From Variovorax guangxiensis (GTDB lineage: Bacteria > Pseudomonadota > Gammaproteobacteria > Burkholderiales > Burkholderiaceae_C), in NCBI RefSeq assembly GCF_003952165.1, contig NZ_RXFT01000002.1:434001-498000 (forward strand): a DNA stretch of 64,000 bases, written 5' to 3'. Of this stretch, positions 9,264-31,203 are shown piece after piece. The notes beneath the pieces were generated by a model. That model ran no database searches, was not told where the DNA came from, and saw only the letters and a list, made by a program, of their open reading frames with translations. The position numbers were made by a program, and so were the translations under genes. The first letter of the stretch is position 1. Each line of letters begins with the position of its first letter.

Positions 9264-10081
9264 TTCCAGGCGGGCTGGTTGGCCAGGCGCGAGAGCGGGA
9301 AGCGGTCGACCTCCTGCAGCAGCTCGACGAAGCGGCGGCCCACGTGGTCGAGCACGGCGGCGCCCTTCTCGGCGGTGGCGCGCGTTGCGTCGCCGGCGGC
9401 GCCCGCGGGGTTGATGTCGTGCATCTGCCAGCCGAGCTTGCCGCTGGGCGTGATCGAGAGAAACTTGTTCTCCTCGGCCAGCCGCTCGGTCATGGAACTG
9501 AAGTTCTGGAACTGGTCTTTGCGCACGTAGTCGGGCGTGAGGTGCAGCATCACCGAGCTTTCGAGGTCGCCGGCATGGATGCCGTGCCTGCCTTCATGCG
9601 CCGTGAACAGGCCCTCGGGCAGGCCCAGCGTGTACCAGTTGGCGGCCACGACCATCATGTCGTGCTCCTCGCGCAGGTCGCGCGCGACGATGTCCATCAC
9701 GCTCATCTGGCCGCCGTGGCTGTTGTAGAGCACCAGCTTGCGCACGCCGGCCTTCGCGACACAGGCGCCGATGTCCTTCCACATCGAGATCAGCGTGTTC
9801 GCCGACACGGTGAGCGTGCCGGGGTAGCGCGAGTGCTCGTTGCTCTTGCCGTAGGGCACGGTGGGCAGGAACAGCACCGGCAGGTCGGCGGGCAGGTGCG
9901 GCAGCGTGGCGCGCACCATGCCGTCGATGGTGGCGGTGTCGGTCGACATCGGCAGATGTGGGCCGTGCTGCTCGGTGGCGCCCACCGGCAGCACGGCGAT
10001 GAGCCGTTCGCGGTCGAGGCGGGAGAACTCTTCGCTGGTCAGGTCGGACCAGAAGCGGCTGCGCAGGGGCGGCGGATTCAT
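9260..10081 (-). CDS. Creatininase family protein (creatinine amidohydrolase-like)
   Basis: A 273-residue creatininase-fold hydrolase. The metal-binding motif GATEQHGPHLPMSTD is at residues 34-48, with LYNSHGGQMS near 120 and HAGDLESSVML near 168. The family contains creatinine amidohydrolase and mycofactocin/formamide hydrolases and acts on cyclic or linear amides using two metals. As first gene of the reverse operon it sits upstream of its own importer and redox enzymes. Its substrate is therefore probably an imported cyclic amide or degradation product. True creatininase activity is only one option. Confidence 0.85.
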   Translation of the reverse strand: MNPPPLRSRFWSDLTSEEFSRLDRERLIAVLPVGATEQHGPHLPMSTDTATIDGMVRATLPHLPADLPVLFLPTVPYGKSNEHSRYPGTLTVSANTLISMWKDIGACVAKAGVRKLVLYNSHGGQMSVMDIVARDLREEHDMMVVAANWYTLGLPEGLFTAHEGRHGIHAGDLESSVMLHLTPDYVRKDQFQNFSSMTERLAEENKFLSITPSGKLGWQMHDINPAGAAGDATRATAEKGAAVLDHVGRRFVELLQEVDRFPLSRLANQPAWK

Positions 10082-10099
10082 CGTGGGTGTACCTCGTGC

Positions 10100-10150
10100 C
10101 GCCGGGCGTGGCGGTGGCTTAAATTATCCATACGGTCAAAAAAGGAGGGC
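10100..10150 (-). promoter_or_regulatory. Probable promoter region of the creatininase-ABC operon
   Basis: The 178-base gap upstream of the reverse operon is GC-rich except for an AT-rich patch at about 10119-10147. On the minus strand it contains TTGACC (near 10133-10138) followed closely by TATGGATAATTTA. This is the only promoter-like stretch ahead of the first gene. The -35/-10 spacing is not ideal, so exact boxes are not assigned. Confidence 0.35.
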
Positions 10151-10259
10151 TATCGGTGGATACCCGGCAAATTTCGCCATGCAAGCGTCGTGCCATCAAA
10201 TTTGCCCAGATGGTATGAAATAGCTGTCCGCACGGCTCCGCCCACCCTGCGGCGCCGGC

Positions 10260-11885
10260 TCAGCGCCGCACGATGTAGCGCGTGACGACCGGCCCCGACT
10301 CGCCGATGTGGAAGGCGAGCCTGCGTTCGCGCAGCGCCATGTCGCTGGCCGTCGCACGGTTGAAGCGGCGCAGGTGGTCGGTCCACGATTCGTCGACGAT
10401 CTGCTCCACGTAGCGCTCGGGCTGCGCGATGTCGTGCAGCAGCTCCCAGCCGACGGCGCCCTGGCTCAGGCGCGCGCGGCGCGTCTGCTGCATCACGAGG
10501 TGGAAGGCGGCGGCGCGCGCCGGATCGATCAGGTACTCGACGGTGATCACCACGCGGCCGCTTTCCTCGGGCGCTTCCGCGGGCGGACCGACGGCCCAGC
10601 CGGCCTGCGCGGGGCTGGTGTCGTCCTCGCCGCTTAGGTCGGTCACCCAGCGCAGCGCCGCGAGCATCAGCAGCGTGCCGCTCGCGGCCGCCACGCACAG
10701 GCTCGCGACCAGCGAGCTGACGGTGGCCACCTGCCCCCAGATGGCCGCGCCGATCGCGCTCGCGCCCATGATCGCCATCTGGTACATCGACATGCCGCGC
10801 GCGCGCACCCAGTCGGGCAGCGCGAGCTGGGCCGATACCGACAGCGAGTTGGCCACCGTGATCCACGCCATGCCGCCGAAGAACATCGCCGGCACCGCGA
10901 CCCATGCGTTGGGCGCGAAGGCCATCACCGCCGTGGCGCCCGACTGCAGCAGCGTGCCGCGCAGCACCAGCTGGTCGCGTCCCATCGCCTGGCGCAGCCG
11001 CGGCAAAAACAGCACCGCGACGATCGCGCCCGCGCCCATGGCCGCCAGCAGCAGCGTGAAAGTGCCCGCGCCGCCGCCCTGGAGGTTGCGCGCCAGCAGC
11101 GGCAGCAGCGCCAGCAGCGCGGTCGAGTGGAAGAAGAAGATCGAGATGCGCGTGAGCACCGCGCGCATGCGCTGCGACTGCCGCACGAACTGCACGCCCA
11201 CGCGCATCGCGCTGACGAGCTTCTCGCGGCCCAGCGGGTTGGGCGTGTGCTCGCGCCGCCAGCGCAGCACCACGAAGCCCGAGGCCACAGACAGCACCGC
11301 GTTCAGCGCGAACACCCAGATGCTGCCCGCGCTCGCGATCAGCATGCCGGCGGTGAGCGGGCCCACGATGCGCGAAGCGTTCATGGCGATGCCGTTCAGC
11401 CCCAGCGCGGCCGGCAGCTGCGTGCGCGGCACCAGCTCGGGCACGATGGCCGCGAACACCGGCCAGCGCAGCGCCAGCCCGATGCCGTTGGCGAAAGTCA
11501 GCGCCAGCAGCAGCGGCGCGGTCATCAGGTCGAGCGCCAGCGCGGCGCACAGCACGATGGCGGTGCCGGCCAGCCAGAACTGCGTGGCGACCAGCCAGCG
11601 CCTGCGGTCGAGGATGTCTGCCAGCGCGCCGCTGGGCAGGCCCAGCAGGAACACCGGCAGCGTGGAGGCCGACTGCACCAGCGCCACCCAGATCGGCGAG
11701 GAAGTGAGCGTGGTCATCATCCACGCTGCCGCCACGTCGTTCATCCACATGCAGATGTTGGCGACGAGCCAGGTGCTCCACAGCATGCGGAACACGGGGA
11801 GCTGGAGGGGCACGAGGGCCGCGAACTTCGTCGGCTGCGGCCTCGCGGGCGGGATGGGCGTCTCTTCGGGGGATATGGGCGGCAT
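10260..11885 (-). CDS. MFS transporter with C-terminal ABM-like domain (MFS_3/EntS type)
   Basis: A 541-residue protein. Residues about 25-415 form a twelve-helix MFS exporter of the MFS_3/EntS class, with the loop motif GALADILDRRRW near residue 90. After a low-complexity linker comes about 95 residues (VVITVEYLIDPARAAAFHLV onwards, ending VTRYIVRR). This segment looks like a ferredoxin-like ABM or heme-oxygenase-like dimeric alpha-beta barrel. Similar fusions occur in proteobacterial MFS genes annotated as enterobactin-exporter-like. The transported compound is unknown. It stands alone, with no operon partner nearby. Confidence 0.85.
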   Translation of the reverse strand: MPPISPEETPIPPARPQPTKFAALVPLQLPVFRMLWSTWLVANICMWMNDVAAAWMMTTLTSSPIWVALVQSASTLPVFLLGLPSGALADILDRRRWLVATQFWLAGTAIVLCAALALDLMTAPLLLALTFANGIGLALRWPVFAAIVPELVPRTQLPAALGLNGIAMNASRIVGPLTAGMLIASAGSIWVFALNAVLSVASGFVVLRWRREHTPNPLGREKLVSAMRVGVQFVRQSQRMRAVLTRISIFFFHSTALLALLPLLARNLQGGGAGTFTLLLAAMGAGAIVAVLFLPRLRQAMGRDQLVLRGTLLQSGATAVMAFAPNAWVAVPAMFFGGMAWITVANSLSVSAQLALPDWVRARGMSMYQMAIMGASAIGAAIWGQVATVSSLVASLCVAAASGTLLMLAALRWVTDLSGEDDTSPAQAGWAVGPPAEAPEESGRVVITVEYLIDPARAAAFHLVMQQTRRARLSQGAVGWELLHDIAQPERYVEQIVDESWTDHLRRFNRATASDMALRERRLAFHIGESGPVVTRYIVRR

Positions 11886-11914
11886 GTGGCGCTATTTTGG
11901 CGCGGCCGCCGTCG

Positions 11915-12685
11915 TCAGCCCCTGTCGCTTCGGGCCAGGCGGTGCTCGAGGCGGCGCAGCAGGGTGGTGAGGATCAGCGTCATCACCCAGTAGATGACCG
12001 AGATCGCGAGGTAAGGCTCCCAGTAGCGCGCATACGCACCGGCCACGGTGCGCGCGGCATACGCCAGTTCGGCCAGGCCGATGGCGGAGACCAGCGACGT
12101 ATCTTTCAGCAGCGCGATCGCGTTGTTGCCCAGCGGCGGCAGCATGCGGCGGAAGGCCTGCGGCAGCACCACGTAGCGCATCACCTGCGCGGGCGAGAAG
12201 CCCAGCGAACGGCCCGCGTCGAACTGGCCGCGCGAGATCGACTGGATGCCGGCGCGGAACACTTCCGAGATGTAGGCGGCCGAGTTGAGCGTGAGCGCCA
12301 CCACGCCCGAGATGAGGGCGCCGTGCTCCTGCTTGAGCGTGCGCGCGAGCTCGCCGTCGATCAGGATGCCCGAGGTCGGGTGGATGAACACCGGCATCAC
12401 CGCAAAGTGGATCAGCAGGATCTGAACGAACAGCGGCGTGCCCCGGAAGAAGCTCACGTACACCGTGGCCGGCCAGCGCAGGAAGAAGCGCGCCACCCAG
12501 GTCCACGGCGCGTGGCGCGGGTGCGCCAGCCGCGCGAGCGCGAGGCACAGCCCCCAGCTCGCGCCCAGCAGCACGCAGACCACCGTCATGCGCAGCGTCA
12601 TCCATGCGCCCTGCCAGAACAGGTCCTTGTATTCCACGAGGATGTCCCATCGGAACCATCCAAAAAGCAGCACTGGTTGTTCCAT
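11915..12685 (-). CDS. Polar amino-acid ABC transporter permease (HisM/GlnP type)
   Basis: A 256-residue permease. It contains several membrane helices and the typical FFRGTPLFVQILLIHF segment near residue 80, which marks the HisMQ/GlnP class. The cytoplasmic loop GRSLGFSPAQVMRYVVLPQA near 180 contacts the ATPase. It lies 80 bases downstream of the matching binding-protein gene, separated from it by a hairpin that could lower its expression. No ATPase gene follows, so the transporter must share an ATPase encoded elsewhere. Confidence 0.9.
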   Translation of the reverse strand: MEQPVLLFGWFRWDILVEYKDLFWQGAWMTLRMTVVCVLLGASWGLCLALARLAHPRHAPWTWVARFFLRWPATVYVSFFRGTPLFVQILLIHFAVMPVFIHPTSGILIDGELARTLKQEHGALISGVVALTLNSAAYISEVFRAGIQSISRGQFDAGRSLGFSPAQVMRYVVLPQAFRRMLPPLGNNAIALLKDTSLVSAIGLAELAYAARTVAGAYARYWEPYLAISVIYWVMTLILTTLLRRLEHRLARSDRG

Positions 12686-22185: not shown

Positions 22186-23094
22186 ACCAAGACCGGCTAT
22201 TCGCTGCTCAAGCGCCATGCGCTGCAAGGCATGGCGCAAGCATGCACACCGCGCAGCACGCGACCGCTGAACTCTCCTACGCGCAGCACCGATGCGCTGG
22301 AGCAGGCCGTGGTCCAGCTGCGGCGCGAGCACCCCAGTTGGGGTGGACGCAAGATCGCCCGCCGGCTGGCCGACCAGGGCCTGGGCGAGGTTCCTGCGCC
22401 CAGCACCGTCACCAACATCCTGCATCGCCATGGGCTGATCACTCCAGAGTCCAGCAAGGCAAGCGAACACTGGTGCCGTTTCGAGCACGAGCAGCCCAAT
22501 GCCCTGTGGCAGATCGACTTCAAGGGCGACTTCGCCATGGCTGCGGCGCGCTGCTATCCGCGGACCGTGCTGGACGACCATTCGCGCTTCAATCTCGCGC
22601 TGAGGGCTTGTCCCAGCGTGGGCACCGACAGTGTGCGACCGCACCTGGAGCAGGTCTTTGCCCGCTATGGGCTGCCGGTGCGCATCAACACGGACAACGG
22701 CGCTCCCTGGGGCGCTCCGCGTCAACCGGCGCATGGACTGTCCGAGCTGGGCGTGTGGCTCATCAGGCTGGGGATTCGGCTGAGCCACAGCGCGCCGTAC
22801 CACCCTCAGACCAACGGCAAGATCGAACGCTTCCACCGCTCGCTGAACACGGAGGTGCTCGCCGGGCGCAGCTTCGCCGATCTGGGCCAGGCCCAGGCGG
22901 CCTTCGAGCGCTGGCGCGGCATCTACAACCACGAGCGTCCACACGACGCGCTGGACCTTCTCACGCCCGCCAAGCGCTACGCGATCAGCCCCAGGCCCTA
23001 TCCGCGGGCGTTGGCTCCCATCGAGTACCAGCAGGGGGACACATCAGCCGTTCATGCGGCTGGACTTGAAATCCCCCTGACGGCAAGGCGATAA
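22186..23094 (+). pseudogene. IS481-family transposase, N-terminus missing
   Basis: The frame runs from a stop at 22183-22185 into TKTGYSLLKRHALQGMAQ, which matches the middle of the helix-turn-helix region of IS481 transposases. The first 35-40 residues (including the usual CRRFGIS segment) are absent. The catalytic core is intact: WQIDFKGDF with the first Asp, INTDNGAPWG with the second, and NGKIERFHRSLNTE with the Glu. The tail WRGIYNHERPHDAL is typical. A start codon at 22231 lies too far in to restore the DNA-binding part. Confidence 0.8.
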
Positions 23095-23137: not shown

Positions 23138-23425
23138 GAGCATCAAAAGATCGAGATCACAGCCCGAATGGCTGCGGTCAGCTGTTTGCAAGTCACTATC
23201 TCGATGCTCTTCGAACTCATCAGCGGCAAAAATCTCCAGTGGTCATCTGGTAGTGAAGGCAGGAGCTCCAAGCCAGTTGATACTCTTGCCTCTGCGCAGC
23301 GGGGCAAGCCTGCTGCAGCCCAGTCGGAGGTCGCGGACACTCGACTGATCTACGTCATCGGCGTAAAGCTTGAACTGGTTATGCAGAGATCCGGAGGGCC
23401 CTGCCTCAAGGGGGTACTCCAAAGT
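23138..23425. other. Gap between the IS481 end and the peptide exporter gene; no supported gene
   Basis: A 288-base stretch of mixed composition. A 65-codon GTG frame on the reverse strand (23143-23340) has no ribosome-binding site and no recognisable product. No clear terminator was seen after the exporter gene. The stretch may be scar DNA from the arrival of the island. Confidence 0.4.
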
Positions 23426-25555
23426 TCAGGTGGATGGCGCTTCGACTGCTTTGCTCTCGACCAAGCGGCCATTCACGAAGTGGACAACTCTGTCGGCCGA
23501 AGCGATCGTTTCTGGCCTGTGAGCAACGATGATCCGAGTGATATGCAACGACCTGATCGCTGCGTTCACCTGCTTCTCCAACTCGACGTCTAGATGGCTG
23601 GTGGCTTCATCCAGAATCAAGATTTTCGGCTTCTTGAAAATGCTCCGGGCAAGCAAGATTCGCTGTTTTTGTCCTCCTGAAAGCGTGCTGCCCATGTCTC
23701 CCACCAAGGTCTCGTATCCCATCGGAAACATCATGATGTCGGTGTGAATTGCGGCCAGCTTGGCGCACTGCTCTATGTCCTCGCGGGACGCAGATTCGGT
23801 AAAGAAGGAAATGTTGTCCGCGATGGACCCAGCGAACAATGAATCGTCTTGCATGACTACACCCACCAAATCGCGGTACTTCTTCTTTCCGATATTCACG
23901 ATGTCGACGCCTCCCACCATAATCTTTCCGCTAGTTGGAGGAAGGGCCCCGATCAGCAGGTTCAACAGACTGCTCTTGCCGCTGCCCGATGGCCCTACTA
24001 TGGCGAGCGACTCCCCTTCCTCGACCTGCAGGCTTACCTTCTCCAAAATCAGCCGGTCGAACCTCGAATAACGGAATGAGACGTCATGTACTTCCAAGTT
24101 GAAGTGATGCAATTCACCAAGGTCAAAGTCCGCAGCATCATCGCTTTCCTCCTGCTCGGTGTAGACAATGTCGGCGAGACGCTCGCCTTGTAGTCGAAGC
24201 ATCCGGACTTCGAAATAGTTGTCGATCAGCGCTTGGACCCGGCCGGAGAACTGCTCCCTGTAGGCAAGAAAGCCCATCAGCACACCGATGGTAATCGAGC
24301 CTTCCAGCGAGAGAGTTGCAGCCCACCACACGGTGACGATCCGCTCTACGCCGAAGATGCATGGTGCCGCGTTTTTTACGATGAGCGTCGCTCTTTCAGT
24401 CCTTAATCCGGCATTCAGCTGATTGACTAGCATGCCCAGCCATGTCGCTCGTCGCTCTTCCCGCTTGCCGAAGAGACTGATTGCCTGAATCCCGCGTATG
24501 GTTTCCAGAAAGAACGAGTTTTGCTTCGCCGCATGCACGATCGCTTCGGTGTTGGCAGCCCAAGAGTAGCTGTACACGATCGATCGCACTAGGACGTATA
24601 AGCTCACCGAAAGCGCGACCGGTATGAAAAGAGTCCCGCCATAAAGCAGCATCGCGATGCCTGTGGCAATCGCCATAAAGCCATCGAGAATCGCATCAAG
24701 GAACGAGGTCGTGAGAGTCTTCTGGATCGAGTCGACTGCGGACGTCCTGGAAACCACGTCGCCCAGGTGGCGCTTCTGAAAGAAGTCCAGCGGCAGGTTT
24801 AACAGGTGGGCGAACACGCCGTTCTTCCATTGGAAGCCTAGAGATGTGTTTAGGTGGATCATCATCCAACCTCTGGCCGCAGTGATGCCGTTCTGCAGCA
24901 AGCACATACCGACGAAACACAGGGCGAGCATCCCGATCAGCGACTTGTCATCCGCCGGGATGCCGCGATCGACGATCCACTGGACATAGAAGGGCATCAG
25001 CAGCGAGAACATCTCCGCCGCCAGTGCCAGGAATGCGATCTGCCCCAGGGAGCGACGCAACCCGATGGTCCTGCCCATTAGGTCACGAATGCGAACGCGA
25101 GGCGCGGGCGCCTTTTTGACGAAGCCTGTGTCCGGATAGAGCTCGAGCGCTGCGCCCGTAAAGCATCGGGACAACTCCGCGATCGAAATCTGTCGTTGAC
25201 CGACGGCGGGATCGCAAATTACCGCGCTGTCGCCGCGGTACTCGACTAGCACCACGAAGTGCTGAAAGTTCCAATGAAGAACGCATGGAAGCGTGAGGTG
25301 CTCGACGCCATCCATGTCCAATTTCAGAGGTCGGCTCACCATCTTCAGCCGCGTCGCCAAATGCATGAGTTGACTGAAATTTAGCCCCTTGAGCGAGATC
25401 GGGAATCTACGTCGTAGTGTTCGCAGGTCAACGGAGTGGCCATAGAAGGAGGCGACCATTGCAAGGCAAGCCAATCCACACTCGGAGCTCTCACTCTGAA
25501 GAATTGTAGGAAAGGTGCGACGCCAGCCCGACGATAGTTGATTCAGTACCTTCAT
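23426..25555 (-). CDS. Peptidase-containing ABC transporter (C39 peptidase, bacteriocin-type exporter)
   Basis: A 709-residue PCAT protein. The ATG at 25553-25555 overlaps the HlyD stop (ATGA). Residues 1-135 are a C39 double-glycine peptidase: Gln20, Cys26 in SECGLACL, His99 in NFQHFVVL and Asp115 in CDPAVG. A six-helix membrane domain follows at about 160-430. The ATPase domain has GPSGSGKSS, LSGGQKQR and ILILDEATSHLD with a late His (VAHRPE). It should cut the leader of the small precursor after its Gly-Gly site and export the core. It is the last gene of the reverse operon. Confidence 0.93.
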   Translation of the reverse strand: MKVLNQLSSGWRRTFPTILQSESSECGLACLAMVASFYGHSVDLRTLRRRFPISLKGLNFSQLMHLATRLKMVSRPLKLDMDGVEHLTLPCVLHWNFQHFVVLVEYRGDSAVICDPAVGQRQISIAELSRCFTGAALELYPDTGFVKKAPAPRVRIRDLMGRTIGLRRSLGQIAFLALAAEMFSLLMPFYVQWIVDRGIPADDKSLIGMLALCFVGMCLLQNGITAARGWMMIHLNTSLGFQWKNGVFAHLLNLPLDFFQKRHLGDVVSRTSAVDSIQKTLTTSFLDAILDGFMAIATGIAMLLYGGTLFIPVALSVSLYVLVRSIVYSYSWAANTEAIVHAAKQNSFFLETIRGIQAISLFGKREERRATWLGMLVNQLNAGLRTERATLIVKNAAPCIFGVERIVTVWWAATLSLEGSITIGVLMGFLAYREQFSGRVQALIDNYFEVRMLRLQGERLADIVYTEQEESDDAADFDLGELHHFNLEVHDVSFRYSRFDRLILEKVSLQVEEGESLAIVGPSGSGKSSLLNLLIGALPPTSGKIMVGGVDIVNIGKKKYRDLVGVVMQDDSLFAGSIADNISFFTESASREDIEQCAKLAAIHTDIMMFPMGYETLVGDMGSTLSGGQKQRILLARSIFKKPKILILDEATSHLDVELEKQVNAAIRSLHITRIIVAHRPETIASADRVVHFVNGRLVESKAVEAPST

Positions 25556-26841
25556 TGGATGTGCGCGCCTCGGTTCCTCAAGCCGAGAAGCGGTTCGAGC
25601 ATCCACTCGTAAAGTCGTCTGGTCTCCAAGAATACGTCGCCGTCTACCAGCAAACCGACACGCAGTGGCTCGGGCCGGTCTGCCACTTGGATGGATTGGG
25701 AGCGCAGTTTGACGGTGACCCTGTACAGGCCTTCATCAGTCAATCGCCTGCCGTTGACCATGGGCGCAAACCCAAGGCCTAGATCGACTGTCGAGATGGG
25801 GGCATCGGAGATATCGCGAACCGTACCGATCACCGTCCCAAACTTTTGGTACGGATAGGCTTGCAGCCGTAGTGATACTGTCGCGCCAGGGCGCATGAAG
25901 CCCATGGCCCGACTGTTGGCAAAAAGTTCCGCCTGCAATGGCGAATCGAGCGGAATTAGGCTCGCCAAAGCGCGCTGGCCTGTCACAGTGTCACCGCGTC
26001 GCGCAGTGACACCGACCAGTCGGCCATCGTCCGGCGCATTGATCGTTAATTCATATCTGTTGGAGTTCTCAAGAGACTCTTGCTGCAGATCGGCGATTTC
26101 CCTGTCAAACTGCAGCAATTGATTGTCGAGTCTGAAAGTATTGAGATTTTGTTCGGATCGATTGCTACGGAGTAGGCTCTGCTTTTCGATTTCATCTCGC
26201 TCCAATGCAGTCAGCAATTCCTGTTGCTCTAGTCCGTCACGCATTTTATCCGCTAGCATCTCGTTGGATATGAATCCCTGCTGCGTCAGCGATTCATAAC
26301 GGGAGGCATTTTGCTGCGTGAGTGACAATCGTTGTCTTTTAAGGAGTACTTGCTTTTTTAGGTTCGTGATTGCAGCCGTTAGTTGGGCTTCCGTTTCCTT
26401 CAATGCCTTTTTTTGGCTGGACGCGATTTCGACCGCTCGTTCGCGTTGCTCGGCCAATATCCTGAGTTTCTTTTTGTTCAGATTGCTGAGCGACGCCTGC
26501 GTACTCTCTTTCGCATTTGCATGCTTGTCGTTCGAGATGGTGAACAAAGGTTGCCCCTTGCGAACGAAAGATCCATCCTCGACCTTGATTTCCGACAGCG
26601 TTCCAGCCTGGTGCGTGTAGATCTTCACTAGTCCTGCACTTGGCAAGATGATGCCTCCGACCGTCGTGCGAGAGGTGTACTCCAGGAACACCAACATCAA
26701 GATCAATGTCGCAACAGCCAGACCGACGATCGTCACCATCAAGCTGAAGGTTTTGGGCCGAGAAAGCAGCGCAGCACCTATCTGGTTCGCGCTGCGCGAA
26801 GCAATAGCATCCGCGCGGAACGGTCCGGGACTCTTGGACAT
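25552..26841 (-). CDS. HlyD family secretion periplasmic adaptor
   Basis: A 429-residue adaptor. One membrane helix at about residues 33-53 follows a short cytoplasmic tail. A biotinyl-lipoyl half (GTLSEIKVEDGSFVRKGQPL) comes next, then a long coiled coil (about 105-255) rich in Lys, Gln and Glu, and the second lipoyl half (INAPDDGRLVGVTARRGDTV) with a beta-barrel. It bridges the C39 exporter to an outer-membrane TolC-type channel, which is not encoded here. The gene starts immediately after the small DUF6176-like gene with no gap, and its own stop overlaps the exporter start. Confidence 0.9.
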   Translation of the reverse strand: MSKSPGPFRADAIASRSANQIGAALLSRPKTFSLMVTIVGLAVATLILMLVFLEYTSRTTVGGIILPSAGLVKIYTHQAGTLSEIKVEDGSFVRKGQPLFTISNDKHANAKESTQASLSNLNKKKLRILAEQRERAVEIASSQKKALKETEAQLTAAITNLKKQVLLKRQRLSLTQQNASRYESLTQQGFISNEMLADKMRDGLEQQELLTALERDEIEKQSLLRSNRSEQNLNTFRLDNQLLQFDREIADLQQESLENSNRYELTINAPDDGRLVGVTARRGDTVTGQRALASLIPLDSPLQAELFANSRAMGFMRPGATVSLRLQAYPYQKFGTVIGTVRDISDAPISTVDLGLGFAPMVNGRRLTDEGLYRVTVKLRSQSIQVADRPEPLRVGLLVDGDVFLETRRLYEWMLEPLLGLRNRGAHIQ

Positions 26842-27408
26842 CTAATCTTGAATCTGCGTGTGTGTCATCAGCGGCCGGCAAGTAATACGCAGCGCTCGAT
26901 CCCAGGAAGCCTTGAAAGCTCGGTGGCGACGATCGATTTCCAAGTCCAGTATCAGTTCCTTTTTTTTGACGCTAATTCCGATCGGCCGCAACATGACTGC
27001 GAAAAGAAAGGCCTCATCCTCGATATAAAAAGAAAACCAGCTTTCGCACAAGACGCCTTCTTGCCTGATGGACTCGATCGCTTGTGCATGAAGGCTAGAC
27101 ATCGAAGAGCGCCAAACCGCCAAGGCAGATTCGCTGCGGGGCAACAACCTAATTACCGCCGTCGACGCGTTGACTTCTGACAATTCGAAAACCATGGTCT
27201 GCTGGCAGACGACATCAGCCAGCAACCTTGTCTCCAGCATGTGACAGGATGCCGGTGACGTGCGGCTTCGTGGGGCTCTCGAATAAGTCGCTAGGAACGA
27301 CGAGCCGCCCACCTCAAAAAACACTCGGATAGAGGATCTATCGCATCGCTCGGGTTCATTGCCAGCGTCGATACGTAGGATTTGAAGTTGTGCGTCAGTG
27401 ATATTCAT
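26842..27408 (-). CDS. Small protein with DUF6176-like C-terminal half, peptide-cluster component
   Basis: A 188-residue protein of unknown role. The N-terminal 70 residues match nothing I recognise. Residues about 85-175 resemble the ferredoxin-like DUF6176 fold: AVIRLLPRSES, a helix ending ESIRQEGVLCESWFSFYIED, a strand EAFLFAVMLRP, and HRAFKASWDRALR. It overlaps the YcaO-like gene by 14 bases and abuts hlyD, so it belongs to the operon. It could bind the precursor leader, partner the YcaO or give immunity; none of these is shown by sequence. No transmembrane segment is seen. Confidence 0.65.
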   Translation of the reverse strand: MNITDAQLQILRIDAGNEPERCDRSSIRVFFEVGGSSFLATYSRAPRSRTSPASCHMLETRLLADVVCQQTMVFELSEVNASTAVIRLLPRSESALAVWRSSMSSLHAQAIESIRQEGVLCESWFSFYIEDEAFLFAVMLRPIGISVKKKELILDLEIDRRHRAFKASWDRALRITCRPLMTHTQIQD

Positions 27409-28381
27409 AGCATGGGATTGGTGGAATCCCGCTCCTGCCGGGATCTTTATAGTGACGCAATGAGTTGGAGTGCGACTTTACGCAGTATCCGCTCGGACAG
27501 GGAAGCGTTGCCGTCCAGATTTCCTGAGCCTGTCCGCGTAAGCGCGCCGCTAGGGCGTCAAATTCGATTGACATAGTCAAATCAGGTTCGTCCTGACTGG
27601 CCGGAAGTTTCTTGACATGGTCGAGCACTTGAATCCGACATCGTGCATCGCGCATCGCTAGCACCGTCTCTCGATGCCGAACTGCGGCGCGAAAATTCAA
27701 CTGTGAATAGTCATCATGAATCATGATCGCCTCAGCGATGGCACCATTCAGTGCGGATTCGAGGCTAGTCGACAATTTGGCACCAATCCCAACAAAACTG
27801 TCAGTTGCGCATATGGCAAGGCAAAATGGTAGCCCTTCGGCGACCAGGCAATGTACGGAGTCGGGAATCAGTTGCCATTCTTGACATGTGATCGTGTGAA
27901 CTTTGAGGTCTTCCTGCCACAGGCGCCAGATCAAATGACGCTCCAATAACTCTAGCACCGAATGCTCCAGGCAGCGCTCCAATTGAAAATGAAACGCCGC
28001 CCCAGTTGCATCTTCGTTGCGTCCAACTTTTCGCTGATAAAGATCAGGAGCAGCAATTTTTTTTTGTGTCCTCGAATAAAATTCTTGAATTGAGAGAAGC
28101 GTCGCGGGATCCAATACCGTCGGGTGTGACCATAAGTGCTCATGCACTTCTCCCAATGCGGAAACTTGTGCCTGAAGCGCATTTCTGGAACACCCGAAGC
28201 CTCGGATCGTTATATGAGGAAGCCCCTGGCAGGCGACAACAGTTGCGGCCCTCGCGACATAGAAATCTCTGTGCGTTGCAGCGGGAATGCAGGAAAATTT
28301 GATAGGAACGGCCTGAAGCATCAGATCCAGGCAGTTTTGAAGATACAACTTAAATCCCCGCACAGGGGGCAAAAGTTTCAA
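27395..28381 (-). CDS. YcaO-like peptide-modifying enzyme
   Basis: A 328-residue YcaO-family protein, a little short for the family. The ATP/Mg motifs can be traced: GFGCSRNALQAQVSALGEVH at 61-80, TGAAFHFQLERCLEHSVLEL with LERH at 126-149, and SLESALNGAIAEAI at about 206-219. The C-terminus ends GIPPIPCYEYH, short of a clean PxPxP. YcaO enzymes activate backbone amides with ATP to make azolines, thioamides or amidines. No ThiF/Ocin-type partner or TfuA is encoded beside it. It overlaps the hydroxylase gene by 32 bases; a second possible start at 28321 would remove the overlap. Confidence 0.82.
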   Translation of the reverse strand: MKLLPPVRGFKLYLQNCLDLMLQAVPIKFSCIPAATHRDFYVARAATVVACQGLPHITIRGFGCSRNALQAQVSALGEVHEHLWSHPTVLDPATLLSIQEFYSRTQKKIAAPDLYQRKVGRNEDATGAAFHFQLERCLEHSVLELLERHLIWRLWQEDLKVHTITCQEWQLIPDSVHCLVAEGLPFCLAICATDSFVGIGAKLSTSLESALNGAIAEAIMIHDDYSQLNFRAAVRHRETVLAMRDARCRIQVLDHVKKLPASQDEPDLTMSIEFDALAARLRGQAQEIWTATLPCPSGYCVKSHSNSLRHYKDPGRSGIPPIPCYEYH

Positions 28382-29387
28382 ACATCTGCTTGCCCGAAGC
28401 AGTCAAATTCCCGTGTTTGGCCAAAATTTCGAGCCCATTTTTCAGGCGAGGTTCGAAATGACTGATTAACCTTTCGTATTGGTTTCCTCCGCCAGCCTTC
28501 ATCAATCTGAAAATTCTCAGCATTCTTGAAATAACAAAAGACGCATGAAAAATGCCATACATCGGGCGTAAATCGGTACGCAGCGGTGCACTGTAGCGTT
28601 CTGTGATTGGATTCAAAACCATGGGGTCCACCAGCATAAGGCCAAAAAGAACGTTGTGCGATGTCTCGTGTACGACATGTTCCATGAAATATGGAACACC
28701 TCGGATGTTGAAGTGCTCTCCAAATTTCTTGCGAATTGGGTCATGATCTGGAGATCCAATGTAAATGGCGCCAAAAGTTCGAATGAGTGAACCACCCATC
28801 AACGCCTGCGCACGAAATACGGTTGCCTCCGAGACTGAGGCGAGCATTTCGTCATACATCAATGGGTCTAGAATCTTGATTGTGTCCAAGACCTGCTTGA
28901 TATCAGCCCTGTATTCGACCAGCTCTTCCTCACTTGTTTTGTAGATTTCGGCTCTGCGGCCATGCACATCCCTTGTTGGATCGTTATGCATATGCTGTAT
29001 GGCTTCAGCGGAGGCTGGACTATTGTTTGGCGCCTGCACCAAAATTCCAGGATGCCCTACCACGGCTTGTTCTTCGTCAATCCATTTCAACGCCCTGTAG
29101 CAACCCAGTGCATCGCCAGTCCGCATCGCAACCCCGGCTTGGTGTACCACGGAATGAAGTGAGGGCTTCAGACGTTGCATTGGGTCCACAGCTTCGATCT
29201 TTTTCTTGATTTCCTCGAGGTCGTGTCCACTTCCCTTTTCGAAGGCGATGCAGATGGCTTTGTAGGTCTTTAAGGTTTCCTCATTCTTCAGTCTTCGAAC
29301 GTATTCGATTCGACTGACATCTTGAGGGATGCATGTAAAAATCTCGCAAGATTTTTTGCTTTCCGGAATTTTGGCTTGTGTGCTCAT
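28350..29387 (-). CDS. alpha-KG-HExxH-type peptide beta-hydroxylase
   Basis: A 345-residue protein. The key signature is FMEHVVHETSHNVLFGLML with HETSH at residues 240-244, then YSAPLRTDLRPMYGIFHASF with Arg270 and the RPMYG...H block at 274-281. This arrangement marks the HExxH-motif family of peptide-modifying enzymes, recently recognised as Fe(II)/2-oxoglutarate-dependent beta-hydroxylases of Asp and other residues in RiPP precursors, not as proteases. The N-terminal 200 residues are helical and may read the leader. It is 47 bases downstream of the precursor gene, with AAAGGGAA before the ATG. Confidence 0.85.
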   Translation of the reverse strand: MSTQAKIPESKKSCEIFTCIPQDVSRIEYVRRLKNEETLKTYKAICIAFEKGSGHDLEEIKKKIEAVDPMQRLKPSLHSVVHQAGVAMRTGDALGCYRALKWIDEEQAVVGHPGILVQAPNNSPASAEAIQHMHNDPTRDVHGRRAEIYKTSEEELVEYRADIKQVLDTIKILDPLMYDEMLASVSEATVFRAQALMGGSLIRTFGAIYIGSPDHDPIRKKFGEHFNIRGVPYFMEHVVHETSHNVLFGLMLVDPMVLNPITERYSAPLRTDLRPMYGIFHASFVISRMLRIFRLMKAGGGNQYERLISHFEPRLKNGLEILAKHGNLTASGKQMFETFAPCAGI

Positions 29388-29407
29388 CGCGTTCCCTTTT
29401 TTTGAAA

Positions 29408-29423
29408 GGCACCCGAAGGTGCC
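29408..29423 (-). terminator. UUCG-capped hairpin between precursor and hydroxylase genes
   Basis: On the minus strand GGCACC, a TTCG loop and GGTGCC form a perfect six-pair stem with a very stable tetraloop, 11 bases after the precursor stop. Only TTTC follows, so full termination is unlikely. It probably protects the 3' end of precursor mRNA or lowers read-through into the enzymes. Confidence 0.6.
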
Positions 29424-29434
29424 GGTTTTAATAA

Positions 29435-29614
29435 TTACGCGTAGCCCTCTGGGAAATCATACGCAAATTGAAGGACAACACCCCCGCCAATCATTTCCAA
29501 CTCCTCTGGCAGCATGAAACTGATTCTTCGTGAAGCAAGATCTTTGGCGACCACGTCGGAGGCAGAAGGAAGATTGCTTACGGGCTCGAAGCGCACGTTT
29601 TCCGATTGATTCAT
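29435..29614 (-). CDS. RiPP precursor peptide with double-glycine leader
   Basis: A 59-codon gene with a perfect GAGGAG ribosome-binding site nine bases before its ATG (29612-29614). The leader runs from MNQSENVRFEPVSN to FMLPEELEMIGGG. It fits the EL-x2-I-x-GG consensus if cleavage follows Gly45, with Glu38, Leu39, Ile42 and Met34 at -8, -7, -4 and -12. That leaves a 14-residue core, VVLQFAYDFPEGYA. It is the first gene of the operon, as expected for a substrate made in excess. The core has no Cys, Ser or Thr; its oxidisable residues are Asp, Gln, aromatic and aliphatic ones. Confidence 0.85.
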   Translation of the reverse strand: MNQSENVRFEPVSNLPSASDVVAKDLASRRISFMLPEELEMIGGGVVLQFAYDFPEGYA

Positions 29615-30002
29615 TGTTTAAAACTCCTCAAATTGGCAAGATTTTCTCTTGCACCCTCCGGACATCGGAGAGTCCTGTTGTACGAGCGGCGCCCGTCTCT
29701 GACCTCAAAGGCGTTCCTCGAATTCTTATGAACGAGCATCTCCTTTTTTTGAATTTTATTGTCGAAATTTTCATTTTTTCATTAGTGAATTAGTTCTAAT
29801 CGAGGGATGATTTTGTGAATTTGTGAAAAATTGCCCAAAAAACATGGCTTGGTCGGATTTTTGACAATTGTTGAGTTTTATTAATTGAAATGTATGCTAC
29901 GAAGGTGGCTCTTCGATTGTTTGCTGGCGGTTATGTTTTTGTGATCGTTTGAATTTATTGCGGTAACTTAACTTCGCGCTCTTGTAGATCAGGCGTGATG
30001 TA
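29615..30002. other. AT-rich upstream region of the peptide operon
   Basis: A 388-base non-coding stretch, the most AT-rich part of the window. It should hold the reverse-strand operon promoter, but no convincing -35/-10 pair was identified. It contains a CTCCG/CGGAG hairpin at 29656-29670 in the likely 5' leader and an ATTAG-type repeat cluster at 29781-29800. A 42-codon frame (29611-29739) overlaps the precursor start but has badly spaced initiation signals. Confidence 0.5.
29781..29800. promoter_or_regulatory. ATTAG repeat cluster, possible operator of the peptide operon
   Basis: Two direct copies of ATTAG (29781-29785 and 29789-29793) are followed after TT by the inverted copy CTAAT (29796-29800), so the last two form a perfect inverted repeat. 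It lies about 170 bases ahead of the precursor gene. A regulator-binding role is inferred from position alone. Confidence 0.35.
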
Positions 30003-30029
30003 TGGGCTGCTGCCGGTTTCAAAGACACC
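30003..30029 (+). repeat. IS3-family left terminal inverted repeat
   Basis: The sequence begins TGGGCTGCTGCCGGTTTC and ends AAGACACC. It mirrors the right end at 31177-31203, with mismatches only in the central part. Confidence 0.85.
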
Positions 30030-30063
30030 TTGTTAAGGTGGAAGATGAAACCGGAGGTGGTTC

Positions 30064-30357
30064 ATGGGAACGAGAAGGCAATTCAGCCGAGAGTTCAAGC
30101 TTGAGGCAGTCAAGCTGGTGAAGGAACGAGGCGTGTCGGTGGCACAGGCTGCACGCGACCTCGATGTACACGAGAACGTGTTGCGCAAGTGGGTGCGCGA
30201 GGCTGCGGTCGACCCGCAGCAGGCGTTTCCTGGTCAGGGCGTGATGAAGCCCGAACAGACTGAGCTGGAGCGCTTGAGGAAGGAGAACGCCAAGCTGCGC
30301 ATGGAGCGTGACCTGTTGAAAAAAGCGGCGGCCTACTTCGCCAAGGAGTCGATGTGA
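30064..30357 (+). CDS. IS3-family transposase OrfA
   Basis: A 97-residue protein with a helix-turn-helix (QFSREFKLEAVKLVKERG, then VAQAARDLDVHENVLRKWV) and a leucine-zipper-like C-terminal helix (ELERLRKENAKLRMERDLL). Near its end the mRNA carries AAAAAAG at 30319-30325, the classical -1 slippery heptamer that lets IS3 elements make an OrfAB fusion. The frame entered by such a shift reads GVDVKFGFV, the expected start of OrfB. Confidence 0.92.
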   Translation: MGTRRQFSREFKLEAVKLVKERGVSVAQAARDLDVHENVLRKWVREAAVDPQQAFPGQGVMKPEQTELERLRKENAKLRMERDLLKKAAAYFAKESM

Positions 30358-31173
30358 AGTTCGGCTTCGTTGGAGGCGCTCGGTGTCTCGCGAAGCGGCT
30401 TCTATGCGTGGCTCAGCAGGCCCCGAAGCCAACGCAGTCTGGAAGACGAGGTGCTCGCCAGCCAGGTGCGTCAGAGCTTCCTGGGCAGCGACCGCACCTA
30501 TGGTGCTCGGCGCGTGTGGCATGACGTGCTGGCACTGGGTCAGCGATGCGGATTGCACCGCATCGAACGGCTCATGCGTGAGCAGGCCCTGCGCGCGAGG
30601 CCGCGACGCCGAGGCTTGCCGCAGGACCGAGGCCAGCGCAGCGCTATCGCAGACAACGTGTTGGACCGCCAGTTCCGAGCTGATGCGCCCAACCAGAAGT
30701 GGGTGGCCGACTTCACGTACATCTGGACGGCCGAGGGCTGGCTATATGCCGCTGCGGTGCTCGACCTGTACTCGCGTCGCATCGTCGGCTGGTCGATGCA
30801 GGACAGCATGACCTCGCAACTCGTGGCCGATGCGTTGATGATGGCAGTGTGGCGCCGGGGCAAGCCGGTCGCGTTGCTGCATCACCCCGACCAAGGAAGC
30901 CAATACACCAGCGAGCACTTCCAAGAGCTGCTCAAGGAGCAAGGCATCACCTGCAGCATGAGCCGCGCGGGCGAGGTCTGGGACAACTCGGCCATGGAGA
31001 GCTTCTTCAGTTCACTGAAGACTGAGCGCACAGCCAGAAAGGTGTACCGGTCCAGGGAACAGGCCCGCGCCGATGTGTTCGACTACATCGAGCGGTTCTA
31101 CAACCCGACGCGCCGTCATTCGACGCTCGGCTACGTCAGTCCGATAGAGTTCGAGAAAGCTCAAAAAGCTTAG
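30358..31173 (+). pseudogene. IS3-family transposase OrfB, damaged at the 5' end
   Basis: The catalytic part is complete: WVADFTYIWTAEG with the first Asp, LHHPDQGSQYTS with the second, and MESFFSSLKTE with the Glu, ending HSTLGYVSPIEFE. However, the body (from EALGVSRSGFYAW) is in the same frame as OrfA, directly after its stop. The -1 frame, which carries the expected KFGFV start, runs into different sequence within a few codons. The simplest reading is a small deletion between KFGFV and EALGVSR. The open frame has only a TTG (30370) as possible start, so the OrfAB fusion cannot be made. Confidence 0.7.
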
Positions 31174-31176
31174 GTC

Positions 31177-31203
31177 GGTGTCTATGAGACCGGCAGCAGC
31201 CCA
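31177..31203 (-). repeat. IS3-family right terminal inverted repeat
   Basis: It reads inward as TGGGCTGCTGCCGGT followed by CTCATAGACACC, matching the left end except at a few central bases. The TG...CA ends are typical of the family. Confidence 0.85.

What the first reader, a model, noticed from the sequence alone, without database searches (positions are those of the whole stretch)
23426..29614. Complete, apparently undescribed RiPP operon: precursor, HExxH hydroxylase, YcaO, DUF6176-like protein and C39 export
Six tightly packed reverse genes pair a double-glycine precursor peptide with an HExxH-type peptide beta-hydroxylase and a YcaO-like enzyme, followed by HlyD and a C39 peptidase ABC exporter. 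Directly seen: gene order, overlaps and catalytic motifs. From family knowledge: each class acts on ribosomal peptides. I do not recall this exact combination being characterised; that novelty is an inference needing a search.
Basis: partly seen in the sequence, partly recalled or inferred. Interest (0 to 1): 0.95.

Follow-up and report, generated by a model that had tools for sequence, protein, structure and literature searches.

The report
Hydroxylase-plus-YcaO peptide operon in Variovorax
A six-gene operon in a Variovorax bacterium encodes a small peptide, two enzymes predicted to modify it (an iron hydroxylase and a YcaO enzyme that would alter its backbone) and a predicted exporter; because the peptide's conserved end has no cysteine, serine or threonine, the YcaO would have to do something other than its usual ring-making reaction.

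Summary
They recur as one sharply bounded 6.3 kb block (85.6% DNA identity, same order) in Variovorax paradoxus MEDvA23; the set is in 2 of 101 genomes of the genus. In 3 of 3 precursors found, the last 12 residues, LQFAYDFPEGYA, are identical and hold no Cys, Ser, Thr or Lys, which excludes classic azoline formation there. The hydroxylase is an aKG-HExxH enzyme alignable with ChlH; the YcaO is a rare divergent type; no TfuA was found in the genome.

Most likely mechanism (inferred): beta-hydroxylation of Gln or Asp, then ATP-dependent backbone activation by YcaO, probably giving a thioamide, then leader removal and export by the C39 transporter as a 13-14-residue product. The boldest open reading: the installed hydroxyl is itself the YcaO nucleophile, giving a new oxazoline.

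Cautions: ycaO carries frame changes in both genomes, both AlphaFold models were poor, and most close hydroxylase relatives seem to lack this YcaO. No paper that I saw parts of in the library describes the set. New variant of a known kind.

The parts
29435..29614 (-). Precursor peptide, 59 aa: leader ending ...MLPEELEMIGGG, predicted core VVLQFAYDFPEGYA
   Evidence: three homologues, last 12 residues identical in 3 of 3; dN/dS 0.12 against L003. The cut after GGG/GGA is inferred from the recalled double-glycine leader consensus (E-8, L-7, I/V-4, G-2, G/A-1).
28350..29387 (-). aKG-HExxH-type peptide beta-hydroxylase, 345 aa
   Evidence: TIGR04267 E=2.1e-18; profile of 11 relatives aligns to ChlH 8s5f, E=5.3e-10, with HExxH, the PLRxDLRP-like stretch and the HA motif
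27395..28321 (-). Stand-alone, divergent YcaO, 308 aa; C-terminus IPCYEYH where both relatives end IPML
   Evidence: PF02624 30.5 bits (frame from 28381); Glu58, Glu61, Glu124, Glu127, Arg128, Glu197 invariant in the 5-row alignment; weak PDB sequence matches MJ1094 6pe3 (E=0.013) and McbD 6gos (E=0.025)
26842..27408 (-). DUF6176-like protein, 188 aa: N-terminal ~85 aa without a match plus C-terminal DUF6176 domain; candidate YcaO partner (inferred)
   Evidence: PF19673 E=2.3e-7 over residues 86-187; full-length relative in L003; in 1 of 369 class genomes, the window's own
25552..26841 (-). HlyD-type periplasmic adaptor, 429 aa
   Evidence: PF13437 58.1 bits; 88% identical in L003
23426..25555 (-). 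C39 peptidase / ABC exporter, 709 aa (Cys26 in ECG at 25-27, His99 in HFVVL, Asp115 in DPAVG, Walker A at 521, LSGGQ at 625, Walker B at 645)
   Evidence: PF03412, PF00664, PF00005; motif positions, their roles recalled
29615..29721 (-). Conserved 5' leader RNA with two predicted stem-loops; upstream limit of the conserved block
   Evidence: Alignment with L003 ends at 29721; fold z -1.86; motif in 2 of 101 genus genomes, both at this operon; only sub-threshold, chance-like Rfam matches
29408..29423 (-). Stem-loop between precursor and hydroxylase genes (GGCACC-UUCG-GGUGCC)
   Evidence: Fold -12 kcal/mol, z -1.99; conserved in L003. Not listed as a terminator on this strand: no T run follows
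30003..31203 (+). Intact-looking IS3-family element with 27-bp terminal inverted repeats, upstream flank of the operon
   Evidence: Inverted repeat 30003-30029 / 31177-31203, 93%; NF033516 332.4 bits for 30370-31173
22231..23094 (+). IS481-family transposase, downstream flank
   Evidence: NF033577 243.7 bits, cut-off 224

Best explanation
This is a mobile-looking predicted RiPP operon whose aKG-HExxH enzyme is predicted to beta-hydroxylate the core peptide and whose stand-alone YcaO is predicted to phosphorylate a backbone amide of the same core, most likely turning it into a thioamide, before a C39 exporter would cut off the leader and secrete a 13-14-residue peptide. Shown by sequence: the genes and their order, the conserved block, the enzyme families, and an invariant core LQFAYDFPEGYA without Cys, Ser, Thr or Lys. 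Inferred: hydroxylation at Gln49 and/or Asp53, since known relatives hydroxylate Gln, Asp and His. Also inferred: sulfide as the YcaO nucleophile, because the conserved core offers no side-chain nucleophile of the classic kind and no lysine amine, and because a free N-terminus would arise only at export. The sulfur source is unknown; no TfuA was found. The DUF6176-like protein is the candidate partner or leader binder, which is a guess from position and co-occurrence.
For: - Block conserved end to end in L003, dN/dS 0.09-0.23; YcaO and 5' leader in 2 of 101 genus genomes.
- Core identical in 3 of 3 precursors while the residues next to the cut vary, VV/T/A; in the core, window and L003 DNA differ only synonymously, at Ala51 and Phe54 (positions 50 and 53 of the gap-free alignment).
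- HExxH enzyme over its curated cut-off and aligned to ChlH.
- YcaO metal/ATP-site glutamates kept (their roles are recalled).
- Top PDB sequence match and top Foldseek match is 6pe3, an archaeal YcaO; both are weak hints.
- Precedent: E. coli YcaO thioamidates uL16 Met82 directly beside RoxA-hydroxylated Arg81, and E. coli has no TfuA (PMC13063428, abstract and passages).
Against: - No TfuA in the genome, though RiPP thioamidation described in PMC8153245 and PMC13174530 (passages) uses it.
- The azoline-forming YcaO McbD is almost as good a PDB match (E=0.025) as 6pe3 (E=0.013), so the sequence does not settle the reaction.
- ycaO is frameshifted inside L003 and altered at its end in the window. 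YcaO and DUF6176-like evolve faster than the rest (0.20 and 0.23 against 0.09-0.12), so YcaO may be dispensable.
- Of 10 HExxH relatives apart from the window's own, only P0002 shares a contig length with a YcaO hit (P0013), so most seem to work without this YcaO.
- Both structure models are low confidence (pLDDT 34 and 40).
- No chemistry has been tested.
Confidence: 0.42

Rival explanations
1. The YcaO uses the hydroxyl that HExxH installs as its nucleophile: beta-hydroxy-Gln or beta-hydroxy-Asp is cyclodehydrated onto the preceding carbonyl, giving a 5-substituted oxazoline (net -2.016 Da) that Ser/Thr-derived azolines cannot give.
For: The conserved core lacks every standard azoline residue, yet the YcaO keeps its metal/ATP-site glutamates. 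Both relatives end in a Pro-rich IPxIPML tail, loosely like the PxPxP of azoline-forming YcaOs; McbD is the second PDB match. The daptide YcaO uses a nucleophile made by earlier modifications (PMC12338566, passages). HExxH-YcaO adjacency recurs in L006 and L009.
Against: No YcaO in the passages I read uses an enzyme-installed beta-OH. PxPxP itself is not met. The window YcaO lacks the ML end. L006 and L009 have no match to the C39-ABC and I saw no double-glycine precursor within 700 bases upstream, so they do not show the same pathway.
Confidence: 0.18
2. Only the hydroxylase matters: YcaO (and perhaps the DUF6176-like protein) is decaying or accessory and the product is just beta-hydroxylated.
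Against: dN/dS of the 3' part of ycaO is still 0.20, and YcaOs P0013 (5 member sequences) and P0014 run through both places without a break. The lesions may be assembly errors in draft genomes.
Confidence: 0.22
3. The HExxH enzyme mainly trims the C-terminus oxidatively, as PflC/PosC do at Ala of ARMD, turning ...EGY-Ala into ...EGY-amide (-72.02 Da, worked out by hand).
For: PflC/PosC, the same family, cleave before an Ala and leave an amide (PMC12636437, abstract and Discussion). The core ends in an invariant Ala.
Against: No ARMD-like tail follows the Ala; in PosA only the Ala of the motif was critical, but it was followed by three more residues.
Confidence: 0.07
4. YcaO makes an amidine ring with the freed N-terminus, as in streptamidine, klebsazolicin and bottromycin.
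For: YcaOs of such clusters do this (PMC8442711, passages).
Against: The leader is predicted to be removed by the exporter's C39 domain at export, after which a cytoplasmic YcaO could not act. No other protease gene lies among the six genes.
Confidence: 0.05

Closest known systems
pfl/pos clusters (PflC/PosC aKG-HEXXH, Pseudomonas; PMC12636437)
   Same: Precursor plus aKG-HEXXH enzyme acting on a leader-guided peptide; beta-hydroxylation of Gln
   Different: There the second enzyme is an MNIO-nitroreductase, with a GNAT and no protease encoded; here YcaO, a DUF6176-like protein, HlyD and C39-ABC
ChlH / rSAM-HExxH cyclophane pathways (8s5f; Morishita 2024, cited in PMC12452194, not held, not read)
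   Same: Catalytic HExxH domain alignable by profile
   Different: No radical SAM enzyme in this operon; the hydroxylase is a separate 345-aa protein
Thioamitides (TsaH YcaO, TsaI TfuA, TsaJ 2OG oxygenase; PMC8153245)
   Same: A YcaO and a 2OG-dependent beta-hydroxylase modify one core peptide
   Different: pfam05721 oxygenase acting on His, TfuA required, many more enzymes; here HExxH family, no TfuA, no His in the core
E. coli RoxA/YcaO pair on ribosomal protein uL16 (PMC13063428)
   Same: A beta-hydroxylase and a TfuA-free YcaO modify neighbouring residues of one substrate
   Different: Substrate is a folded ribosomal protein and no short peptide gene lies near; E. coli YcaO was not compared with this YcaO here
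Streptamidine-type clusters around unfused YcaOs (PMC8442711)
   Same: RiPP cluster around a YcaO that is not fused to another domain
   Different: Different precursor and enzymes (AmiB also needed); amidine ring at the N-terminus; no HExxH enzyme in the passages read
Daptide YcaO, DapY (PMC12338566)
   Same: YcaO whose nucleophile, in the novel reading, would be made by another enzyme of the pathway
   Different: Acts on a C-terminal amine made by DapBCD/M; has PxPxP

Membership tests
aKG-HExxH-type peptide beta-hydroxylase (TIGR04267) | Profile match above the curated cut-off, with HExxH | tested here: met
   66.9 bits, cut-off 40; HETSH at 240
aKG-HExxH-type peptide beta-hydroxylase (TIGR04267) | aKG-dependent hydroxylation of a precursor | not testable with these tools
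   Needs enzyme assay
YcaO superfamily (PF02624) | Profile match and ATP/Mg-site acidic residues | tested here: met
   30.5 bits, cut-off 25.7; E58, E61, E124, E127, R128, E197 invariant in 5 rows; residue roles recalled. The six-frame family search of the whole genome reported only another YcaO and missed this weak one.
Azol(in)e-forming RiPPs (TOMM/LAP) | Core with Cys, Ser or Thr | tested here: not met
   Invariant 12-residue core has none in 3 of 3; only L003 has one Thr, at a variable site next to the cut
Azol(in)e-forming RiPPs (TOMM/LAP) | SagD-type YcaO, and PxPxP C-terminus | tested here: not met
   TIGR03604 12.4 bits against 219.25; C-terminus IPPIPCYEYH, relatives IPxIPML
YcaO-TfuA thioamidated RiPPs | TfuA encoded | tested here: not met
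   No PF07812 match in the whole genome; control genome M. acetivorans rings
YcaO-TfuA thioamidated RiPPs | Thioamide in the product | not testable with these tools
   Needs MS
Double-glycine peptides exported by C39-ABC transporters | GG/GA leader end plus C39-ABC with catalytic Cys, His, Asp | tested here: met
   EELEMIGGG / EELDMVGGA; PF03412 116.9 bits and ECG, HFVVL, DPAVG motifs; motif roles recalled
RRE-dependent RiPPs | RRE domain in operon | tested here: inconclusive
   No RRE-type match among the rows shown for the six proteins (the exporter's NCBIfam list was cut at 25 of 201); the DUF6176-like model is too poor to judge its N-terminal part

The most novel reading that the evidence does not exclude
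The hydroxylase makes the YcaO's nucleophile. The aKG-HExxH enzyme installs a beta-hydroxyl on Gln49 and/or Asp53 of a core that has no Cys, Ser or Thr, and the YcaO then closes it onto the neighbouring amide. The result is an oxazoline with an amino-acid side chain on C5: a hydroxylate-then-cyclise RiPP logic that would free azoline chemistry from Cys/Ser/Thr.
Probability: 0.18. Interest if true: 0.85.

Novelty: new variant of a known kind. Interest (0 to 1): 0.55.

Why it matters
It would be a compact natural system in which a peptide hydroxylase and an amide-activating YcaO share a 13-14-residue substrate whose conserved part contains none of the residues that azoline-forming YcaO enzymes need. 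Either outcome is informative: a TfuA-free RiPP thioamide beside a beta-hydroxyl would be a peptide counterpart of the E. coli RoxA/YcaO pair, and an oxazoline built on an enzyme-installed hydroxyl would be a new way to make backbone heterocycles. It also gives DUF6176, a family named in no paper of the library searched, a testable role.

Tried and rejected
Structure of the DUF6176-like protein: AlphaFold with 2 rows gave pLDDT 34, not used. YcaO model: 5 rows, pLDDT 40; its Foldseek list is led by 6pe3 at E=1.8e-3, with no match at E<=0.001, taken as a hint only. Profile search of the DUF6176-like protein against PDB sequences: nothing.

DUF6176 hit on an Acinetobacter plasmid: its annotated surroundings, 8 kb on each side, show no RiPP genes, so rejected as a related cluster. 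Hydroxylase in viral contigs: no relative. YcaO on plasmids: none. Hydroxylase on plasmids: 4 records, all distant; the one looked at has an MFS transporter next to it and no YcaO is annotated. Rfam on 29300-30060: three sub-threshold, chance-like matches.

The tRNA-Arg that ARAGORN calls at 27400-27490 lies inside ycaO, has no Rfam match and is not called in L003: rejected as a false call.

A single origin of HExxH-YcaO pairing was considered. In a 39-row tree the four YcaO-linked rows need 3 changes, at least 2 forced by starred branches. L006 and L009 are long branches, so recurrent pairing is likely but not proven. Left out of the tree before building: own-genome and MEDvA23 duplicates (L001, L027, L034-L036, L040-L043), P0002, L014, L016 (hydroxylase frame in pieces) and L019 (split). 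L014 was intact and was left out needlessly.

Full report
WHAT IS THERE. Six reverse-strand genes fill 29614-23426. The precursor has 59 residues. The hydroxylase matches TIGR04267, aKG-HExxH-type peptide beta-hydroxylase (66.9 bits, cut-off 40). The YcaO matches PF02624 weakly but above cut-off (30.5 against 25.7), the 188-aa protein matches DUF6176 over its second half (31.2 against 27), and HlyD and C39-ABC matches are strong. Two corrections: the database entry for YcaO begins at ATG 28321 (308 aa), and the ABC gene best begins at ATG 25555, overlapping the HlyD stop. DUF6176-like and HlyD genes abut as TAG-ATG, HlyD and ABC overlap as ATGA, and the YcaO and DUF6176-like genes overlap by 14 bases, as expected of one operon (coordinates and sequence).

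SETTING. The genes are 48-55% GC, while the other 2-kb blocks of the window are mostly 64-72%. An intact-looking IS3-family element with 27-bp inverted repeats (30003-31203) lies upstream and an IS481-family transposase (22231-23094) downstream. The window's genome is a 7.18 Mb assembly. Its genus also holds G709, whose fetched loci lie letter for letter within L003 from V. paradoxus MEDvA23, so the genus is Variovorax.

CONSERVATION. L003 carries the same six genes in the same order. One blastn alignment covers window 23422-29721 at 85.6% identity and stops just past the ABC stop codon and about 107 bases upstream of the precursor start. It is the only alignment between the 21-kb locus and the window at E<=1e-5, so the surroundings differ. 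dN/dS: precursor 0.12, hydroxylase 0.10, DUF6176-like 0.225, HlyD 0.10, ABC 0.09; 3' part of ycaO 0.20. The operon is rare: this YcaO is found in 2 of 101 genomes of the genus and 1 of 398 of the phylum sample; the DUF6176-like protein in 1 of 369 of the class sample; the single genome is the window's own. A hydroxylase of this close type was likewise seen only in the window's own genome among 299 family and 399 order genomes; the other genomes' hits there are distant (E about 1e-21 to 1e-29). The conserved 5' leader motif is in 2 of 101 genus genomes, both at this operon. It folds into two stem-loops, and a further stem-loop lies after the precursor gene (z -1.9 and -2.0, modest). The latter is not a typical terminator on the coding strand.

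PRECURSOR. A profile search of the protein collection returned 3 proteins: the window's, L003's, and one of unnamed origin (P0017). Aligned, the leader ends EEL(E/D)M(I/V)GG(G/A) and the cores are VVLQFAYDFPEGYA, TLQFAYDFPEGYA and ALQFAYDFPEGYA if the cut follows GG(G/A). I place the cut there because it puts E, L and I/V at -8, -7 and -4 of the double-glycine consensus (recalled). The last 12 residues are identical in 3 of 3; the DNA of window and L003 differs there only synonymously, at Ala51 and Phe54 (positions 50 and 53 of the gap-free alignment). The invariant part has no Cys, Ser, Thr, Lys, Asn, His, Arg or Trp. The one Thr in L003 sits at a site that is Val or Ala in the others.

HYDROXYLASE. 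One search found 11 proteins, the window's own included, at E<=1e-3; the closest after the 87% relative P0002 are 52-60% identical (P0003 to P0007; P0004 from Cupriavidus, P0006 from Herbaspirillum). Their profile finds ChlH (8s5f) at E=5.3e-10 with the HExxH, PLRxDLRP-like and HA stretches aligned. Characterised relatives hydroxylate Asp and His (ChlH-type, as told in PMC12636437) and Gln (PflC/PosC, same paper; abstract, introduction, one result section and discussion read). The core offers Gln49 and Asp53.

YCAO. Only 3 proteins of this type, the window's own included, were found at E<=1e-3 among 4305 candidates. The metal/ATP-site glutamates are kept (roles recalled). The best PDB sequence match is archaeal MJ1094, 6pe3, at E=0.013, closely followed by the azoline-forming McbD at E=0.025, so this does not tell the reaction. 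The best Foldseek match of a poor model is 6pe3 too. It is not a SagD-type cyclodehydratase (12.4 bits against 219). A PF02624 search of the whole genome reported one other YcaO (274 bits) and missed the operon's weak one; that other YcaO does not appear when the profile of this type is run over its locus. No TfuA was found in the genome. Two results weigh against a working YcaO in these strains. In L003 the frame breaks near residue 70. In the window the last residues are IPCYEYH where the relatives P0013 and P0014 end IPML; next to that place the window DNA is one base shorter than L003. Whether these are mutations or assembly errors cannot be told here.

PAIRING ELSEWHERE. Among 20 loci that encode HExxH relatives in the species-genome collection, 3 have a YcaO of this type beside the hydroxylase gene: L003, L006 (Oligoflexia) and L009 (Legionellales) (PF02624 confirmed for L006, L009 and P0013). 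A YcaO too different for these profiles would have been missed, and several loci are short. In L006 the next gene is on the other strand with a weak MFS_1 match below cut-off, and in L009 the next frame has no Pfam match; neither locus has a match to the C39-ABC, and I saw no double-glycine precursor within 700 bases upstream. The tree puts the window's clade (support 100/98) apart from L006 and L009, which are long branches. So hydroxylase-YcaO pairing has probably arisen more than once.

MECHANISM. Shown: genes, order, conservation, families, core composition. Inferred: HExxH adds a beta-hydroxyl to Gln49 and/or Asp53; YcaO activates a backbone amide. With no classic side-chain nucleophile, no Lys, and a free N-terminus only at export, the likeliest nucleophile is sulfide. 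E. coli YcaO does just this on uL16 without TfuA, next to a beta-hydroxyarginine, and in vitro it needed sulfide, Mg and ATP (PMC13063428; abstract and passages). Thioamitides also combine a YcaO with a 2OG hydroxylase, but with TfuA (PMC8153245, passages). The bolder reading, that the new hydroxyl is the nucleophile, gains some plausibility from daptides, where earlier modifications make the nucleophile for the YcaO (PMC12338566, passages). I give the thioamide reading 0.42 and the oxazoline reading 0.18.

NOVELTY. HExxH with YcaO and RiPP gave 4 papers, 3 listed; five terms at a minimum of four gave 9, 8 listed; DUF6176 gave none. In what I read of the listed papers no such set is described; of the 8 listed I read parts of two (PMC12636437 and PMC13174530). 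The library lacks most subscription papers and I cannot exclude a description there or in a database of predicted clusters. The components are all of known kinds; the combination, the core without azoline residues and the DUF6176-like gene make it a new variant.

Noticed in passing
L002 67-1842 (own genome, G000 contig C9 about 127652): The same genome has a second HExxH domain, fused behind an FxsB-type radical SAM/SPASM domain (TIGR04269 308 bits, below its cut-off of 370; TIGR04267 132 bits), a likely cyclophane RiPP locus.
   Followed up: partly
window 30003-31203: IS3-family element with 27-bp terminal inverted repeats at 93% complementarity, just upstream of the operon.
   Followed up: partly
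window 27400-27490: ARAGORN calls a tRNA-Arg (CCT) inside ycaO on the other strand; no Rfam match and not called in L003, so probably a false call.
   Followed up: yes
window 29615-29721: Conserved 5' leader with two stem-loops, seen only at this operon in 101 genus genomes; possible regulatory RNA.
   Followed up: partly
L006 3003-3941: A second YcaO (PF02624 58 bits) on the opposite strand about 7 kb from the Oligoflexia hydroxylase-YcaO pair.
   Followed up: no
L013, L014, L015, L016, L019, L020 (about 9500-12200): A recurring cassette of HExxH protein, a 133-aa protein and (where complete) a roughly 380-430-aa protein (MFS-like by eye) in Moraxella, Salinivibrio, Acinetobacter, Histophilus and Vibrio; hydroxylase frames are in pieces in L016 and L019.
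   Followed up: no
L021 9362-12016 and L022 9413-11793: HExxH protein followed by a roughly 470-aa protein (adenylate-forming-like by eye) and, in L021, a 78-aa carrier-protein-like frame; HExxH enzymes may also act in carrier-protein chemistry.
   Followed up: no
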